Source of the DNA: Demequinaceae bacterium
Lineage (GTDB): Bacteria > Actinomycetota > Actinomycetes > Actinomycetales > Demequinaceae
Assembly (NCBI GenBank): GCA_011524475.1
Contig: WTKG01000077.1
Location: 1-6,233, forward strand
Length of the DNA stretch: 6,233 nt
Reading direction: 5' to 3'
Positions 1 through 6,233 of the stretch are shown here, in pieces. The notes beneath the pieces were generated by a model. That model was not told the DNA's origin. It was given only the letters and a program-made list of their open reading frames with translations, and searched no databases. Position numbers and translations under genes: made by a program. The stretch's first letter is position 1; the number at the start of each line of letters is the position of its first letter.

Positions 1-2454
1 TCAGTACGCTCTGTCCCCGCGAAGTTGTTGATGGATAACCGAGTAGTGATTAATAACCATCTGGAACGCACTCGGGGCGGCAAGGTCTCCTTCACGCACC
101 TCATTAGCTTTGCTGTGATCGAAGCACTCGAAGAATTCCCTGCCATGAACGTGAGTTATGCCGAAGAAAACGGAGCCTCGGTCGCAGTCTCTCCTCCTCA
201 CGTCAATCTCGGTATCGCCATAGACATCCCCCGATCGGACGGGACTCGTCAACTTCTCGTCCCTAATGTCAAAGCAGCAGACACGATGGACTTCCGGCAA
301 TTCTGGGAATCGTACGACGACATGGTCAAGAAGGCCCGTGCAGGAACGCTGGTCCCAGAAGACCTCGCTGACACCACCATCACTCTGACAAATCCGGGAA
401 CTTTGGGAACTGGCCATTCCGTTCCGCGACTGATGCAAAACCAAGGAGCCATTGTCGCGGTGGGGGCTATGGATTACCCCGCTGGATATCAAGGAGCGTC
501 ACTGGAGACGTTGGCGCAACTGGGCGTGTCAAAAGTCATGACCCTCACCTCTACCTACGACCATCGCGTTATTCAGGGAGCCCAATCGGGAGAGTTCCTC
601 GCACTGGTACACAAAAAATTGTTGGGTCAAGACGGATTTTTTGACCGTGTTTTCCGTTCTCTCGCAGTTCCATACGAACCAGTGCGCTGGGTTCAAGACA
701 GCACGACCACCACACATGCAGAGGCCACTAAGCCTGCATTGATCGCAGAAATGATTCACTCCTACCGCTCGCGCGGACACCTCATGGCGGACGTGAACCC
801 TCTGAGTTCGAGGCCCCGGCGCCATGCAGACTTAGACATCGCCACGCACGGACTCACGCTGTGGGATCTCGATCGGGTGTACCCCACTGGTGGATTTGGC
901 GGTGTTCCCCAGGCCAAAATGCGAGAAGTACTTGGGCTGTTGCGCAACGCGTACTGCCGCACTATGGGTGTCGAATACATGCACATCTCCGACCGTTCCA
1001 AGCGTTCATGGTTCCAAGAACGCCTCGAAACCGACTATGTGAAACCCACGCGGGAAGAACACCTCCGCATCCTGCGTCGTTTAAACGCTGCGGAAGCTTT
1101 CGAAGCTTTTCTGCAGACTAAATACGTAGGTCAAAAAAGATTCTCACTCGAAGGTGGGGAAAGTTTGATCCCCCTGCTGGATGCAGCACTGTCCCGCGCA
1201 GCAGAAGAAGGCACTCTCGAGGTGTGCATCGGGATGGCTCATCGAGGTCGACTGAATGTTCTGGCCAATCTTGCTGGCAAGTCGTATTCCCAAATCTTTA
1301 AGGAATTCGAGGGCTCGACGGATCAACGTTCAGTTCAAGGTAGCGGTGACGTGAAGTACCACCTTGGCACTGACGGCACATTTACATCAGAGTCAGGAAA
1401 AACAACACAGGTATACCTCGCTGCGAACCCTTCGCATCTGGAGGCCGTCAACCCCGTACTACAAGGGATCGCTCGCGCCAAAATCGACGAACACGGCGGC
1501 TTTGACTCCCCGGGGACACCTGCGGCTCCCGTCTTACCCGTGCTTATCCATGGTGATGCGGCATTTTCCGGTCAAGGCGTCGTTATGGAAACACTTAACC
1601 TGGGGAAACTCGACGGCTATCGCACCGGCGGCACCATTCACGTCATCATCAATAACCAGGTGGGATTCACTACGGGACCTGAAGCATCACGGTCTACTCG
1701 ATACTGCACTGACATCGCCAAGGGATATGAAATTCCGATCCTGCACGTCAACGGTGACGACCCTGAAGCTTGTGTCCGGGCCGCACGGCTTGCTTTTGAC
1801 TATCGTCAACGCTTTGGTCATGACGTCATTATCGACATGGTCTGCTACCGCCGCCGTGGCCACAACGAAGGTGATGACCCTTCGATGACCCAGCCCCGCA
1901 TGTACGACACGATCGAAACAAAAAGGTCTGTGCGACACCTGTTTACCGAGTCACTCATTCGTCGCGGAAGCATCACTGAGACTGAGGCTGAAACCATGTC
2001 TCAGGATTACCTCGCGCAACTGGAGAGAGTATTTGCGGAGACGCGTGAAGGGTACGTCTCTGACTCCCCCGGAGAAGACGTTGCTGGTCTTGAACTCCCC
2101 AAGTCTCAAACAGAAGACGCCGGGGTCATGGTCGGATGGAAGAGCGCTGTCGATGTGTCCTTACTCGATCGGATTGGTCGCGCTCACCTACGCCCACCTC
2201 CGGAATTCACCGTTCACCCCAAACTTGCAAAACTGCTGGAAAAGCGCGCCGCGATGGCCACTGGTGAGGGGATCGATTGGGGTTTTGCAGAAATCCTGGC
2301 ATTCGGAACCTTGTTGCAAGAAGGAGTGCCGGTGCGCATGGCCGGCCAGGATTCACGGCGGGGCACCTTCGTGCAAAGACATGCGACCTTCCACGACCGG
2401 CTCACGGGCAAAGAGTGGACTCCCTTAGAGCATTTGAGCACCTCACAAGGCTAA
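1..2454 (+). CDS. kgd: Kgd portion before the internal stop: E2 acyltransferase domain plus E1 ThDP-binding half
   Basis: Numbering codons from base 1, residues 1 to about 210 are the E2 acyltransferase domain. It starts within the conserved stretch V-P-A-K-L-L-M-D-N-R and ends with the active-site region D-H-R-V-I-Q-G at codons 187-193. A short linker follows, then the E1 part with the helix I-H-S-Y-R-S-R-G-H-L near codon 255. E1 motifs seen are G-M-A-H-R-G-R-L-N-V-L (His at codon 414), the V-K-Y-H-L-G segment, S-H-L-E-A-V-N-P, the ThDP/Mg site G-D-A-A-F (Asp codon 519) with I-I-N-N-Q-V-G-F (Asn codons 551-552), R-R-G-H-N-E-G-D-D-P-S (His codon 621), and G-Q-D-S-R-R-G-T-F near codon 783. If translation stops at 2452 the product would lack the pyrimidine-side catalytic segment and the C-terminal domain. 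The ATG at 25 is an internal methionine, not the real start. Confidence 0.9.
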   Translation, partial: SVRSVPAKLLMDNRVVINNHLERTRGGKVSFTHLISFAVIEALEEFPAMNVSYAEENGASVAVSPPHVNLGIAIDIPRSDGTRQLLVPNVKAADTMDFRQFWESYDDMVKKARAGTLVPEDLADTTITLTNPGTLGTGHSVPRLMQNQGAIVAVGAMDYPAGYQGASLETLAQLGVSKVMTLTSTYDHRVIQGAQSGEFLALVHKKLLGQDGFFDRVFRSLAVPYEPVRWVQDSTTTTHAEATKPALIAEMIHSYRSRGHLMADVNPLSSRPRRHADLDIATHGLTLWDLDRVYPTGGFGGVPQAKMREVLGLLRNAYCRTMGVEYMHISDRSKRSWFQERLETDYVKPTREEHLRILRRLNAAEAFEAFLQTKYVGQKRFSLEGGESLIPLLDAALSRAAEEGTLEVCIGMAHRGRLNVLANLAGKSYSQIFKEFEGSTDQRSVQGSGDVKYHLGTDGTFTSESGKTTQVYLAANPSHLEAVNPVLQGIARAKIDEHGGFDSPGTPAAPVLPVLIHGDAAFSGQGVVMETLNLGKLDGYRTGGTIHVIINNQVGFTTGPEASRSTRYCTDIAKGYEIPILHVNGDDPEACVRAARLAFDYRQRFGHDVIIDMVCYRRRGHNEGDDPSMTQPRMYDTIETKRSVRHLFTESLIRRGSITETEAETMSQDYLAQLERVFAETREGYVSDSPGEDVAGLELPKSQTEDAGVMVGWKSAVDVSLLDRIGRAHLRPPPEFTVHPKLAKLLEKRAAMATGEGIDWGFAEILAFGTLLQEGVPVRMAGQDSRRGTFVQRHATFHDRLTGKEWTPLEHLSTSQG

Positions 2455-3288
2455 CTTGAAATTTTTGACTCACCCCTGAGCGAATTCGCGGCGCTGGGGT
2501 TTGAATACGGATACTCAGTTGAGCGACCCGATGCTCTTACGTTGTGGGAAGCTCAGTTTGGTGACTTCGTCAATGGGGCTCAAACCATCACCGATGAGTT
2601 CATCTCTTCTGCCGAGCAGAAATGGGCCCAGTCCTCCTCGGTGGTGTTGCTCTTACCTCACGGATACGAAGGACAGGGGCCAGATCACTCCTCAGCCCGA
2701 GTGGAACGTTTCTTACAGTTGTGCGCCGAAGACAACATGATCGCTGCGATGCCTTCCACCCCCGCCTCCTACTTCCACCTTTTACGCCGGCAGGCGTATG
2801 ACCGCCCTCGGCGGCCACTGGTGGTCTTCACCCCCAAGTCCATGCTGCGCATGTCTCAAGCAACCAGTCACGCCGACGATCTCACGTCTGGGTCATTTCA
2901 CGAGATCATTGATGACCCTGTGGTCACTCCAGAAGATGTCACGAAGGTTCTCTTGTGCGCGGGAAAGGTCTATTACGACCTGCGAGCCACCCGAGAGTCT
3001 TTGGGTGACACCAGTACGGCTATCGTGCGTCTGGAGCAGCTCTACCCTCTCGACGCGGAAGCTTTCACGTCGATCCTGAACCACTACCCAGAAGCGTCTG
3101 TGGCGTGGGTACAAGAAGAACCCGAAAACCAAGGCGCGTGGAGTTATCTCAGTCGTGTCACAGCCACACTCATTGATCGCCCGCTATCAGTGGTGTCGAG
3201 GCCGGCGTCAGCCTCTCCAGCTTCTGGGTCCGCACGCATACACACAGCCCAGCAAGAAGCCTTGCTGTCCCAGGCTTTCCGCAGATAA
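2455..3288 (+). pseudogene. kgd: Kgd portion after the internal stop: E1 pyrimidine-binding and C-terminal domains
   Basis: This stretch continues the kgd frame and carries the rest of E1. It opens with D-S-P-L-S-E-F-A-A-L-G-F-E-Y-G-Y-S, whose Glu (2503-2505) matches the conserved glutamate that activates the ThDP aminopyrimidine in this family. Next come W-E-A-Q-F-G-D-F-V-N-G-A-Q (from 2545), L-L-P-H-G-Y-E-G-Q-G-P-D-H-S-S-A-R (around 2650-2700), Q-E-E-P-E-N-Q-G-A-W (from 3112) and S-R-P-A-S-A-S-P-A-S-G-S (from 3196). There are 277 codons before the terminal TAA. The first in-frame start-type codon after the stop is TTG at 2542, with no Shine-Dalgarno-like sequence before it and already past the catalytic Glu. 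Independent translation as a working subunit is therefore unlikely. The absence of any further lesion in 277 codons says the interruption is recent or not real. Confidence 0.8.
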
Positions 3289-3332
3289 CTCACCCAGAAA
3301 ATCTAGTTACCTACAAATATCTGTGGCGCTAA
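3289..3332. other. Short convergent intergenic gap between kgd and pilT-like gene
   Basis: Forty-four bases separate the two convergent stop codons. A terminator is expected here, but I see no GC-rich hairpin with a T-run on either strand. The only inverted repeats are short: CAGATA at 3282-3287 with TATCTG at 3318-3323, and TAACT at 3286-3290 with AGTTA at 3305-3309. They cannot form together fully and are too weak to call a terminator. Confidence 0.4.
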
Positions 3333-4421
3333 TTAGGCAATCATTCCTGCATTACGGAACGCTACAGAGAGATCGTGCGGGTTGGAGGCAATCGCCAAAG
3401 CCTCTTCTATCGTGATGGAGTTGCCTTGCGCCAACACAAGAAGATGCTGATCAAATGTCTGCATCTGGTAATACTCGCCTTCGCTAATCAATTCCAAAAT
3501 AGAAGGCTGCCCAGAAGGATCAATAATGGCCTCGGCTGTCCGCCCTGTGTTCACCATAATTTCGGCAACAAGGGTGCGACCCGTACCTGAAGCCCTGCGC
3601 ACCAGCCTTTGAGAAATAATCCCTCGCAGAGTTTGGGCAAGGGTGGCACGAATTTGCCCCTGTTCATGCGGGGAGAAGAAATCCACCATGCGATTAATAG
3701 AGTCTTGTGCATCGATCGTGTGCAATGTGGACAGCACCAAGTGTCCGGTTTCCGCCGCGGACAGGGCAGCGCGCACTGTCTCGGCATCACGCATCTCCCC
3801 CACCATGATCACATCAGGGTCTTGGCGCATGGCACCACGCAAAGCATTATGGAAATCGAGGGTGTCAGTACGGATTTCCCGTTGAGAAATAATTGCCTGC
3901 TTATCTTTGTGCAGGACCTCAATAGGATCCTCGATCGTGATGATGTTCACTTCACGAGTCTCATTTATAAGATCAACCATCGAAGCCAATGTTGTGGTTT
4001 TCCCTGAACCGGTAGGGCCAGTCACAAGAACAAGACCCCGCGGCTCAAGTGCCAGACTTCCGACGACTTCGGGGAGCCCCAACTCCAACATGGATTGAGC
4101 TCCTACGGCCACTTGCCTGAACACCAAAGCGTCTGTTCCACGCGCGACATACGCATTCACACGGAAACGACCCACCCCAGAAAGCGAGAAGGCAAAGTCT
4201 GCTTCATGCGTCTCACGGAACTGGGCAACCATGTCTTCCGGCAGCACCTCTGCGACCATATTGCTGGTGTCTTCAGCAGTCAGCGGCGGGACCTGAAGTT
4301 TACGCAATCGCCCATCCACGCGAATGCGTGGAGCATTGCCAACCTTGCAGTGCAAGTCAGATCCGCCGGTGCTCGCAAGGGCGTGGAGAAGCGGGACCAC
4401 GGACACAGGTGAGTCACTCAT
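3333..4421 (-). CDS. pilT: PilT-like type IV pilus / type II secretion family ATPase
   Basis: The 362-residue protein is a hexameric secretion-type ATPase of the PilT family, which at the cytoplasmic base of type IV pili usually powers filament retraction. Visible features are an N-terminal PAS-like domain with S-D-L-H at 21-24 and a V-G-R-F-R-V-N-A-Y segment at 83-91, Walker A G-P-T-G-S-G-K-T-T at 135-143, the Asp box T-I-E-D-P-I-E at 162-168, Walker B D-V-I-M-V-G-E-M-R-D at 203-212, and the His box T-G-H-L-V-L-S-T-L-H-T at 225-235. Length fits PilT. The C-terminal A-I-R-N-L-I-R-E motif of classical PilT is replaced by S-I-L-E-L-I-S-E (307-314), so a PilU-like or otherwise divergent role is possible. 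The ATG start is supported by AAGGAG (complement of 4427-4432) five bases upstream. No other pilus gene is in the window; it probably has its own promoter in the gap shared with bL37. Confidence 0.88.
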   Translation of the reverse strand: MSDSPVSVVPLLHALASTGGSDLHCKVGNAPRIRVDGRLRKLQVPPLTAEDTSNMVAEVLPEDMVAQFRETHEADFAFSLSGVGRFRVNAYVARGTDALVFRQVAVGAQSMLELGLPEVVGSLALEPRGLVLVTGPTGSGKTTTLASMVDLINETREVNIITIEDPIEVLHKDKQAIISQREIRTDTLDFHNALRGAMRQDPDVIMVGEMRDAETVRAALSAAETGHLVLSTLHTIDAQDSINRMVDFFSPHEQGQIRATLAQTLRGIISQRLVRRASGTGRTLVAEIMVNTGRTAEAIIDPSGQPSILELISEGEYYQMQTFDQHLLVLAQGNSITIEEALAIASNPHDLSVAFRNAGMIA

Positions 4422-4426
4422 ACGTT

Positions 4427-4432
4427 CTCCTT
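4427..4432 (-). promoter_or_regulatory. Ribosome binding site of the pilT-like gene
   Basis: Read on the minus strand this is AAGGAG, five bases before the ATG at 4421-4419. It fixes the start of the PilT-like protein, since no better-placed start is seen near it. Confidence 0.75.
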
Positions 4433-4505
4433 CGGCCGATCCCTCAGGAAACTTGAATGTACCTCACAGAAGCTATGCGATGATGTCTGCCTAGTCTGAT
4501 CACCT
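4433..4505. promoter_or_regulatory. Divergent promoter region between pilT-like gene and bL37 gene
   Basis: The 94 bases between the two divergent start codons must hold promoters for both genes. On the minus strand TACATT (complement of 4457-4462) fits a -10 TANNNT pattern but has no convincing -35 partner. On the plus strand TTGAAT at 4453-4458 could be a -35 with TATGCG at 4474-4479 only 15 bases on, and TAGTCT at 4492-4497 is another possible -10. None is strong enough to assign; the call rests on gene orientation. Confidence 0.35.
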
Positions 4506-4511
4506 AAGGAG
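4506..4511 (+). promoter_or_regulatory. Ribosome binding site of the bL37 gene
   Basis: AAGGAG lies four bases before the ATG at 4516. This good Shine-Dalgarno sequence is a main reason to accept such a short reading frame as a gene. Confidence 0.8.
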
Positions 4512-4515
4512 AACC

Positions 4516-4590
4516 ATGAGCAAGCGTGGACGTAAGCGTAAGTCCCGGGCCAAGAAGAGCGCAAACCACGGAAAGCGCCCGAACTCCTAG
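4516..4590 (+). CDS. 50S ribosomal protein bL37 (24 residues)
   Basis: This 24-residue protein starts M-S-K-R-G-R-K-R-K-S-R and ends A-N-H-G-K-R-P-N-S. Eleven of its residues are Lys or Arg. The K-R-G-R-K start and the A-N-H-G-K-R-P-N end are the hallmarks of bL37, a small rRNA-binding protein of the large ribosomal subunit found in structures of mycobacterial ribosomes and conserved in actinobacteria. It is expected to sit within rRNA as an extended peptide; no enzymatic role is expected. AAGGAG at 4506-4511 supports the ATG, and TAG at 4588-4590 ends it. It is a lone + strand gene between the minus-strand pilT-like gene and the rsrA gene, and is easily missed by gene callers with a length cut-off. 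I recall it as a common neighbour of sigH/rsrA in actinobacteria, which I could not verify here. Confidence 0.9.
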   Translation: MSKRGRKRKSRAKKSANHGKRPNS

Positions 4591-4644
4591 TATTTTCGGC
4601 ACTCACTCGGGCCAGAAACATTCACATTCCGGCTGAAATTTCGG

Positions 4645-4887
4645 TTACTGGCTGTCTCGAGCGTCATTGATAGCCGTCAAAATACGGTGACGAAGTTCTT
4701 CTGGAGCCTTCTCGCGAGTATGCGAATGTACGAGTTCCTTAATCTTTACTCGCAATTCCATTTCACTCTTACAGGGACTGCACTTGTGCAGGTGCTCATC
4801 GATGCGATGGAGATCTTCGTCAGGAAGTTCTTTGTCAATGAATTCGTATAGCCGGTCAAGTGCGTCGTCACAATTTTTCCCCGCCAC
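4645..4887 (-). CDS. rsrA: Zinc-binding anti-sigma factor, RsrA/RshA family
   Basis: The 80-residue protein is a ZAS-type anti-sigma factor, which binds its cognate SigH/SigR sigma factor in the cytoplasm and releases it when thiols are oxidised to a disulfide. The redox zinc motif H-x3-C-x2-C is present as H32, C36, C39 (in H-L-H-K-C-S-P-C), with the additional conserved Cys at position 6 (K-N-C-D-D-A-L). These match C11, H37, C41 and C44 of Streptomyces RsrA. No other cysteines occur, so the expected disulfide would use C6 with C36 or C39. The segment [10 protein letters not shown] at 13-22 is also family-typical. The start is GTG (complement of 4885-4887), with AAGGGGG (complement of 4893-4899) five bases upstream. 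The gene overlaps the end of sigH by 20 bases, indicating translational coupling. It lacks the longer C-terminal tail of Streptomyces RsrA. Confidence 0.9.
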
Positions 4888-5500
4888 GGACGCCCCCTTC
4901 TGTGTCTTTCGCTTTCGCTGTTGGCCTCACATCCCGCACTCCGCGGTTAGCCGCATAGTCATGTAACAACTCGCGTAGCCGTTTCCTTCCCCGATGCAGA
5001 CGCGACATCACTGTACCCACCGGGGTGTCCATGATTTCGCCGATTTCTTTGTAGGAAAACCCCTCCACATCACTGAGATACACGGCAAGACGAAACTCTT
5101 CTGGCAGGTCAGCAAGAGCCTGGCGAATATCAGTGTCCCCGATCTGCTCAAGAGCAGACTCTTCGGCACTCACTAAACCGCTGGATTGATGGCTCGCGGC
5201 ACGAGCAATCTGCCAATCTTCAACCGCGTCTGCATCACTTCGCTGTGGTTCTCTTTGGCGCTTGCGATACACGTTAATGAACGCATTGGTTTGAATCCGG
5301 TACAGCCACGCCTTGAGGTTCGTACCGGGACGAAACTTGTCTTGAGCCGCAAAAGCCTTGGTGTAAGTCTCCTGGACCAGATCCTCCGCATCACTGGGAT
5401 TTTTAGTCATGCGCATCGCGGCAGCAAACAACTGATTCATATAACTGAGCGCTTCGCGCTCAAAGTCAAAATTGTCTTCTGTTCCGTCGTGTGCTGTCAT
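4868..5500 (-). CDS. sigH: ECF RNA polymerase sigma factor, SigH/SigR type
   Basis: This sigma factor of the thiol-oxidative/heat stress response (SigR of Streptomyces, SigH of mycobacteria) directs RNA polymerase to thioredoxin, protease and redox-buffer genes. From the ATG at 5500 it has 210 residues. Region 2 spans about 20-85, with [10 protein letters not shown] at 37-46, W-L-Y-R-I at 65-69 and [10 protein letters not shown] at 72-81. Region 4 spans about 122-182, with L-P-E-E-F-R at 132-137 and a helix-turn-helix around [11 protein letters not shown] and [10 protein letters not shown] at 147-171. Start choice: an in-frame GTG at 5512 would add four residues (start, W, G, V), but family proteins usually begin shortly before region 2 and ATG is the better codon. 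Neither start has a strong Shine-Dalgarno. A run GTGGGGTG before the ATG is the nearest candidate. It is co-transcribed with rsrA. No clear SigH-type GGAAT/GTT promoter is seen upstream. Confidence 0.92.
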
Positions 5501-5590
5501 CACACCCCACACTAGCGCCCGATGAAGAAGACCGCGTTATTTCAAAAACAGGATGAGGCGCATTGGTAGGTTAGGGACCTAGGAGGTGTT
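5501..5590. promoter_or_regulatory. Divergent promoter region between sigH and aroA
   Basis: Ninety bases separate the ATG of sigH from the ATG of aroA, which are transcribed away from each other. For aroA, TAGGTT at 5567-5572 fits a -10 element about 18 bases before the start, without a recognisable -35. For sigH, TTGAAA (complement of 5539-5544) resembles a -35, but no -10 stands at the right distance. The GGAAT-spacer-GTT signature of SigH autoregulation was looked for and not found. Assignment is mainly positional. Confidence 0.35.
5581..5588 (+). promoter_or_regulatory. Strong ribosome binding site of aroA
   Basis: AGGAGGTG matches the anti-Shine-Dalgarno end of 16S rRNA over eight bases; the core AGGAGG ends four bases before the ATG at 5591. 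It is the strongest ribosome binding site in the window and settles the aroA start. Confidence 0.8.
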
Positions 5591-6233
5591 ATGAATTCGC
5601 CCACGGAGCCGTGGCTTTCGCCAACGGCACACAGCGCACTCGACGCTACCGTGGAGATTCCTGGCAGCAAATCTCTCACGAACCGCTACCTCGTACTTGC
5701 GGCGTTAGCCGCATCTCCTGTCTCGGTTTACGGCGGCCTTGACTCCCGTGACAGTGACCTCATGCGCAATGCATTGCGGGCGTTAGGAGTTCACATAGAA
5801 GACTCCACGTCACCCTGGAAAATCACCCCTGCAGCATTGTCGGGTGGGAGCCGCATCGACTGTGGTTTAGCGGGCACTGTCATGCGTTTTATTCCACCCC
5901 TCGTTCTCCTTGCCGATAGCCCTGTGACATTTGACGGTGACAAAGAAGCGCGCGTCCGTCCGATGGGGCCGCTACTGGAGGCACTGCGTCGTCTCGGGGC
6001 GGTGGTGGACGATGGCGGGCGCGGGACACTGCCCTTCACAGTAGAGCCTCCGGAAAAGATTCCCTCGTCTGTGACAGTGGACGCGTCGCTTTCTTCGCAG
6101 TTCGTGTCGGGACTGTTGTTATGCGCACCTGCACTTCCGAACGGGCTGACGATCTACCACGAAGGACGATCACTGCCCAGCCGCCCCCATGTGGACATGA
6201 CCTGCGCCGTATTACGCGAGTGCGGTGTAAATG
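5591..6233 (+). CDS. aroA: 3-phosphoshikimate 1-carboxyvinyltransferase (EPSP synthase), 3' partial
   Basis: EPSP synthase transfers the enolpyruvyl group of PEP to shikimate-3-phosphate, the sixth step of the shikimate pathway to chorismate, in the cytoplasm. The window holds 214 codons of a protein usually 420-450 residues long; the rest lies beyond 6233. Motifs seen: P-G-S-K-S-L-T-N-R at 24-32 (K27, S28, R32 for substrate binding), D-C-G-L-A-G-T-V-M-R-F at 90-100 (the PEP/glyphosate loop, with the Gly at 95), D-G-D-K-E-A-R-V-R-P-M at 115-125 (Arg for PEP phosphate), S-L-S-S-Q-F-V-S-G-L-L at 166-176 (shikimate-3-phosphate site) and S-R-P-H-V-D-M-T at 197-204. The C-G-L-A-G-T-V form of the loop matches my memory of mycobacterial AroA. 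Start ATG is backed by AGGAGGTG upstream. It is divergent from sigH, an arrangement that recurs near sigH in actinobacteria. Confidence 0.95.
   Translation, partial: MNSPTEPWLSPTAHSALDATVEIPGSKSLTNRYLVLAALAASPVSVYGGLDSRDSDLMRNALRALGVHIEDSTSPWKITPAALSGGSRIDCGLAGTVMRFIPPLVLLADSPVTFDGDKEARVRPMGPLLEALRRLGAVVDDGGRGTLPFTVEPPEKIPSSVTVDASLSSQFVSGLLLCAPALPNGLTIYHEGRSLPSRPHVDMTCAVLRECGVN

What the first reader, a model, noticed from the sequence alone, without database searches (positions are those of the whole stretch)
2452..2454. Single in-frame TAA in an otherwise intact kgd
Seen: frame 1 is open from base 1 to 2451 and from 2455 to 3285. Conserved Kgd/SucA sequence runs up to the stop (E-W-T-P-L-E-H-L) and resumes at once after it (I-F-D-S-P-L-S-E-F). 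The frame is the same on both sides, so one base substitution explains it. In relatives as I recall them this position is often Lys before F-x-V-Y-D-S, and AAA to TAA is one change. A broken kgd would remove the standard oxidative 2-oxoglutarate step of the TCA cycle.
Basis: partly seen in the sequence, partly recalled or inferred. Interest (0 to 1): 0.7.

Follow-up and report, generated by a model that had tools for sequence, protein, structure and literature searches.

The report
Stop codon splits kgd gene
In the draft genome of a small-genome relative of Demequina, the only detected gene for the 2-oxoglutarate dehydrogenase enzyme Kgd carries one stop codon in its middle, which would likely cut the enzyme short and open the citric acid cycle; this is an ordinary kind of event, and an error at that single base is not excluded.

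Summary
In detail: kgd is open from 1 to 2451, meets TAA at 2452-2454 and is open again to 3285. The stop lies inside the pyrimidine-binding domain. It is absent from 80 of 80 fetched relatives and from 26 of 26 other matched genomes. 'Otherwise intact' is unproven: about 150 N-terminal positions lie off the contig. The half after the stop shows no relaxed constraint, so the stop is very recent, or an error or minority variant, or tolerated by readthrough. In 39 readable contigs no second interrupted gene was demonstrated, with few candidates tested. The 1.08 Mb, 89% complete assembly shows no second kgd and no POR_N protein. The same search found no match in one 99% complete family member and in 30 of 297 genomes of the order. 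Best reading: a real, recent nonsense mutation that would open the cycle at 2-oxoglutarate. The main rival is an error at one base, which only reads or a second genome can settle. Known kind of event, modest interest.

The parts
1..2451 (+). kgd, part before the stop (open at the contig start): E2-like acyltransferase domain, E1 domain and the first part of the pyrimidine-binding domain
   Evidence: PF00198, PF00676 and PF02779 positions 2-45 of 174 (the last below its cut-off); NF008907 positions 155-958
2452..2454 (+). in-frame TAA stop codon
   Evidence: absent from 80 of 80 fetched loci
2455..3285 (+). kgd, part after the stop: rest of the pyrimidine-binding domain and the C-terminal domain
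   Evidence: PF02779 positions 50-173 of 174 and PF16870; NF008907 positions 961-1240
3286..3288 (+). terminal TAA of kgd
2542..3288 (+). mechanical 248-codon frame from the first in-frame start codon (TTG) after the stop; listed in the protein database as P0121

Best explanation
The kgd gene of this small-genome member of the Demequina family is interrupted by one in-frame TAA inside its pyrimidine-binding domain, likely a real and very recent nonsense mutation that would leave the enzyme without most of that domain and end the standard 2-oxoglutarate dehydrogenase step. Shown: the stop, its place in the domain, conserved sequence on both sides, and no second kgd in the assembly. Inferred: translation would end at 2454; a dimer lacking most of the pyrimidine domain could not form the thiamine-diphosphate site, so E1 activity would be lost although the E2-like domain might still fold; the cycle would then run as one branch from citrate to 2-oxoglutarate, feeding glutamate. 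Because the downstream half has not decayed, the event would be young, an early step of gene loss in a shrinking genome.
For: Stop in frame and inside PF02779. In the solved actinobacterial enzyme ThDP binds at the E1o dimer interface (PMC10415282, passages). Reduced genome: 1,084,055 bases at 89% completeness against 1.8-3.2 Mb in 18 other genomes of the family. A gene that stands between kgd and pilT in L002, and begins after kgd in G003, is missing here. Relatives do without kgd: G001, same family and 99% complete, has no match to the C-terminal piece, nor have 30 of 297 genomes of the order. One kgd, no POR_N. The separate C-terminal frame is in the protein database as a cluster of 2 sequences on 3 contigs, weak because sources are hidden and the contigs may be copies.
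Against: One base in one draft assembly without reads. No relaxed constraint after the stop: after/before distance ratio 1.22 against mean 1.36 (sd 0.19) in 118 relatives; 2 of 126 invariant columns changed after against 15 of 393 before. No second interrupted gene demonstrated in 39 contigs, so no general decay. No near-identical intact or broken kgd was listed among the best 120 of 7997 scored proteins (best 81%), so no sister confirms it.
Confidence: 0.52

Rival explanations
1. The TAA is an assembly or base-calling error, or a minority strain variant that entered the consensus; the population's kgd is intact and the cycle complete.
For: Full constraint on both sides, no second interrupted gene demonstrated in the sample, a fragmented draft of 202 contigs, no other genome of the genus. 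[quoted passage not shown]
Against: Kgd is dispensable in relatives and the genome is reduced. The C-terminal frame is listed on 3 contigs, if these are independent. A low error rate is suggested by the sample, but it was not measured.
Confidence: 0.36
2. The stop is read through at a low rate, so that a little full-length Kgd is made and selection still keeps the C-terminal half.
For: No relaxed constraint after the stop; constrained genes with in-frame stops are reported in bacteria (PMC7918605, abstract and part of the Results).
Against: TAA is the least leaky stop in E. coli (PMC11126739, passages). No unusual structure downstream (z -0.26). The stop is shared by none of 80 loci. TAA ends 64 of 203 long frames in the sample, the window's own interrupted frame counted among them.
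Confidence: 0.05
3. The gene is now two genes whose products work together as a split E1.
For: Both pieces are conserved; E1 enzymes made of two subunits exist (general knowledge, not tested here).
Against: The break lies inside the pyrimidine domain, not at its edge. The first in-frame start is a TTG 29 codons after the stop, with no Shine-Dalgarno-like stretch seen before it, so conserved residues would be lost.
Confidence: 0.03

Closest known systems
Actinobacterial Kgd/OdhA, the two-in-one 2-oxoglutarate dehydrogenase (NCBIfam NF008907; PMC10415282)
   Same: Same domain order and 68-81% identity to the proteins and loci compared
   Different: An in-frame stop inside the pyrimidine-binding domain; the start of the gene is not on the contig
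In-frame stops in conserved bacterial genes (Belinky et al. 2021, PMC7918605)
   Same: A single in-frame stop with normal constraint around it
   Different: Those were counted only if shared by two or more genomes; this one is seen in one species only
Loss of 2-oxoglutarate dehydrogenase in reduced genomes of the order (G001; family f4)
   Same: Loss of the same step, in genomes where the search finds no kgd C-terminal match
   Different: There nothing matches; here the gene is present and broken, if the base is real, by one substitution

Membership tests
Functional Kgd/OdhA (NF008907) | E2-like acyltransferase domain and E1 domain in one frame | tested here: met
   PF00198 and PF00676 in the 817-codon frame
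Functional Kgd/OdhA (NF008907) | Uninterrupted pyrimidine-binding and C-terminal domains in the same frame | tested here: not met
   TAA at 2452-2454 splits PF02779; PF16870 lies after it
Functional Kgd/OdhA (NF008907) | Complete N-terminus and start codon | not testable with these tools
   The contig begins at profile position 155
Pseudogene by nonsense mutation | In-frame stop at a place where relatives have a sense codon | tested here: met
   80 of 80 loci open across the place; 120 of 120 homologues have a residue there
Pseudogene by nonsense mutation | Relaxed constraint after the stop | tested here: not met
   Ratio 1.22 against mean 1.36; 2 of 126 invariant columns changed. A young lesion need not show it
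Pseudogene by nonsense mutation | Stop confirmed by reads or by a second genome | not testable with these tools
   No reads; no other genome in the genus; the 3 contigs of P0121 are of unknown independence
Stop codon readthrough or reassignment | TAA not used as an ordinary terminator | tested here: not met
   64 of 203 long frames end in TAA
Stop codon readthrough or reassignment | Stop shared by relatives, or a stimulating structure after it | tested here: not met
   None of 80 loci share it; fold z-score -0.26
Stop codon readthrough or reassignment | Full-length protein made | not testable with these tools
   Needs a proteome or a reporter

The most novel reading that the evidence does not exclude
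The TAA is fixed and functional: it throttles Kgd to a trickle by readthrough, so that a genome-reduced actinobacterium runs its cycle as a glutamate-producing branch while selection still preserves the C-terminal half of the enzyme.
Probability: 0.05. Interest if true: 0.65.

Novelty: new member of a known kind. Interest (0 to 1): 0.24.

Why it matters
If real, it catches the loss of 2-oxoglutarate dehydrogenase at its first step in a family where a search of one nearly complete relative finds no kgd match, and it predicts an open citric acid cycle in this lineage. If it is an error, it warns against calling pathway gaps from one base of one draft assembly. Either way the deciding test is simple: look at the reads.

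Tried and rejected
Rejected: TAA as a sense codon (64 of 203 long frames of the sample end in TAA). A split gene as a family trait: G003's two-contig kgd is a contig break with a 99-base exact overlap and no stop at the place. P0063, a homologue that ends near the same place, departs from the family from about the ninth residue after it and looks like a frame change; I did not see its DNA. Reinitiation: first in-frame start 29 codons on, no Shine-Dalgarno-like stretch seen. A readthrough structure. A succinate-semialdehyde route by the strong aldehyde dehydrogenase: it stands beside deoC and scores 349 bits against the cut-off 646 of TIGR01780.

Led nowhere: a motif scan with a wrong spacing found nothing in 120 proteins (replaced by the alignment). 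A plain codon-usage scan did not find even the known stop (replaced). Papers on Demequinaceae and genome reduction: one paper listed, on Actinomycetaceae, none, and 12 of 371 listed, none of the 12 with the word Demequina. A search for broken 2-oxoglutarate dehydrogenase genes listed 11 papers, none read. The search for Glu952 of the M. smegmatis enzyme found no paper; that the glutamate at residue 10 after the stop matches it is my recall plus a count with an assumed tag length. A G+C figure of 52% in my note is wrong: it counted masked bases as letters; the 500-base windows of this contig show 50-59%.

Limits of the survey: one search examined 39 contigs of 202, the window included (260,807 bases). 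It listed 49 stops with a non-negative score on both sides; the window's ranks 28th. I judged the other 48 by eye as gene junctions or non-coding; 4 were given to Pfam: one pair gave two different families, one pair a hit on one side only, two pairs none. One search listed 22 frame-switch candidates in 43 contigs; 3 were looked at and are ordinary, the other 19 were not checked by homology.

Full report
What was checked. The window is the whole of contig C46 (6,233 bases) of an unnamed assembly of 1,084,055 bases in 202 contigs, 89.14% complete and 0.14% contaminated. Its genus holds no other genome in the collection. The nearest named loci are Demequina (best segment 76% identity). A same-family genome, G002, has a contig of 2,471,443 bases, the length of the Demequina aestuarii record behind L018, which places the window in the Demequina family.

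The interruption. Frame 1 is open from 1 to 2451, has TAA at 2452-2454 and is open again from 2455 to 3285. NCBIfam model NF008907 covers the two pieces at positions 155-958 and 961-1240 of 1241, so nothing long is missing or extra between them. The stop falls inside Transket_pyr (PF02779): positions 2-45 before it (19.8 bits, below the cut-off of 27) and 50-173 of 174 after it, followed by PF16870. In the solved actinobacterial enzyme ThDP binds at the E1o dimer interface (PMC10415282, passages seen). By recall, the glutamate at residue 10 after the stop is the ThDP-activating Glu952 of M. smegmatis KGD; I found no paper to confirm it.

Relatives. All 80 fetched loci (the best 80 kept of 372) have at least 800 open codons before the C-terminal match. 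Of 29 whole genomes, 27 match. Apart from the window's own genome, 25 of 26 have open frames of 1243-1402 codons, and the 26th, G003, is cut by a contig break with a 99-base exact overlap and a sense codon at the place. In the order, 267 of 297 genomes match (254 of 280 good ones). The list of matches is cut; in the rows printed only the window's frame is shorter than 660 codons. At the place itself the best 120 listed homologues carry Arg 70, Lys 32, Ser 7, Pro 3, Ala 2, Gly 2, Thr 2, Gln 1, His 1: a variable, mostly basic position.

Is the rest decaying? It does not look so. The ratio of distances after and before the stop is 1.22 for the window; 118 relatives average 1.36 (sd 0.19) and 88 of 118 are higher. 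Two of the 120 homologues, P0063 and P0105, were left out because they lack the C-terminal part. At columns that are at least 98% invariant, the window differs in 15 of 393 before and 2 of 126 after the stop. The downstream half was therefore under full constraint until very recently, or still is. A phase-specific Markov scan of 39 contigs, the window included (260,807 bases), listed 49 stops with coding-like sequence on both sides; the window's ranks 28th. The others look like gene junctions or non-coding by eye, and of four checked by Pfam none showed one family on both sides. A frame-switch scan of 43 contigs (281,622 bases) listed 22 candidates; three were examined and are ordinary. So no general decay is visible, in a sample of about a quarter of the contigs and with most candidates judged by eye.

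Can the cell do without? In the 89% complete assembly there is one kgd. There is no POR_N protein (10 of 14 control genomes have it). Of the other two E1 matches, one fits the pyruvate dehydrogenase E1 alpha model best (379.6 bits for a 291-residue piece, cut-off 411 for the whole protein) and one fits dxs best. Citrate synthase is open and over the cut-off of NF004126. Aconitase matches come in three pieces, each at or within two bases of a contig end. One Ligase_CoA match was found, the end of a SucD cut by the contig end; no SucC match was found, whether lost or merely not assembled. The aldehyde dehydrogenase beside deoC reaches no succinate-semialdehyde cut-off; two other aldehyde dehydrogenase-like frames were not tested. 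If the stop is real, the cycle would be open at 2-oxoglutarate. Absence is tolerated nearby: G001 of the same family, 99% complete, has no match to the C-terminal piece, and 15 of the 20 no-match genomes printed belong to one family, f4, of which I saw none among the matching rows.

Real, error or leaky. For a real lesion: a reduced genome (1.08 Mb at 89% completeness against 1.8-3.2 Mb in 18 other genomes of the family), a neighbour gene missing between kgd and pilT, absence of the gene in relatives, and a C-terminal protein cluster, P0121, of 2 sequences on 3 contigs. That cluster is weak evidence: its sources are hidden, the contigs may be copies of one assembly, and neither the window's PilT nor its N-terminal Kgd piece is among the proteins listed in the same database, which I cannot explain. 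For an error or minority variant: one base, one draft, no decay, nothing else shown broken. Belinky et al. [quoted passage not shown] abstract, part 1 of the Results and passages seen). For a leaky stop: only the constraint. Against it: TAA is the tightest stop in E. coli (PMC11126739, passages seen), the downstream RNA has no unusual fold, no relative shares the stop, and TAA ends 64 of 203 long frames.

Verdict. I put a real recent lesion at about one half, an error or minority variant at about a third, readthrough at a few percent. Nonsense loss of a gene in a shrinking genome is a known kind of event. Reads or a second genome would decide it.

Noticed in passing
window 3289-3332; L002 9283-9959: In L002 a gene whose text begins MRNVFLVGDELVAGHGD lies between kgd and pilT (SGNH/GDSL hydrolase-like by recall, no family search); the start of a like gene follows kgd in G003. 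The window has only 44 bases there, so the gene is missing.
   Followed up: partly
window 4516-4590: A 24-residue protein on the + strand matches NF047428, 50S ribosomal protein bL37.
   Followed up: yes
window 3333-6232: pilT, rsrA-like anti-sigma, sigR/sigH-like sigma factor and aroA follow kgd, in the same order as in those Demequina loci that hold the stretch.
   Followed up: partly
L096-L100, L102, L103, L147-L149: Ten fetched contigs of this assembly, each 2.1-2.2 kb, read all N.
   Followed up: no
G001 against G003 (same family, genus g2): G003 has kgd while G001, 99% complete, has no match to its C-terminal piece: a possible recent loss inside one genus.
   Followed up: no
protein cluster P0121: The window's 248-residue C-terminal frame is in the protein database (2 sequences, 3 contigs), but the window's PilT and N-terminal Kgd piece are not among the listed proteins.
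   Followed up: partly
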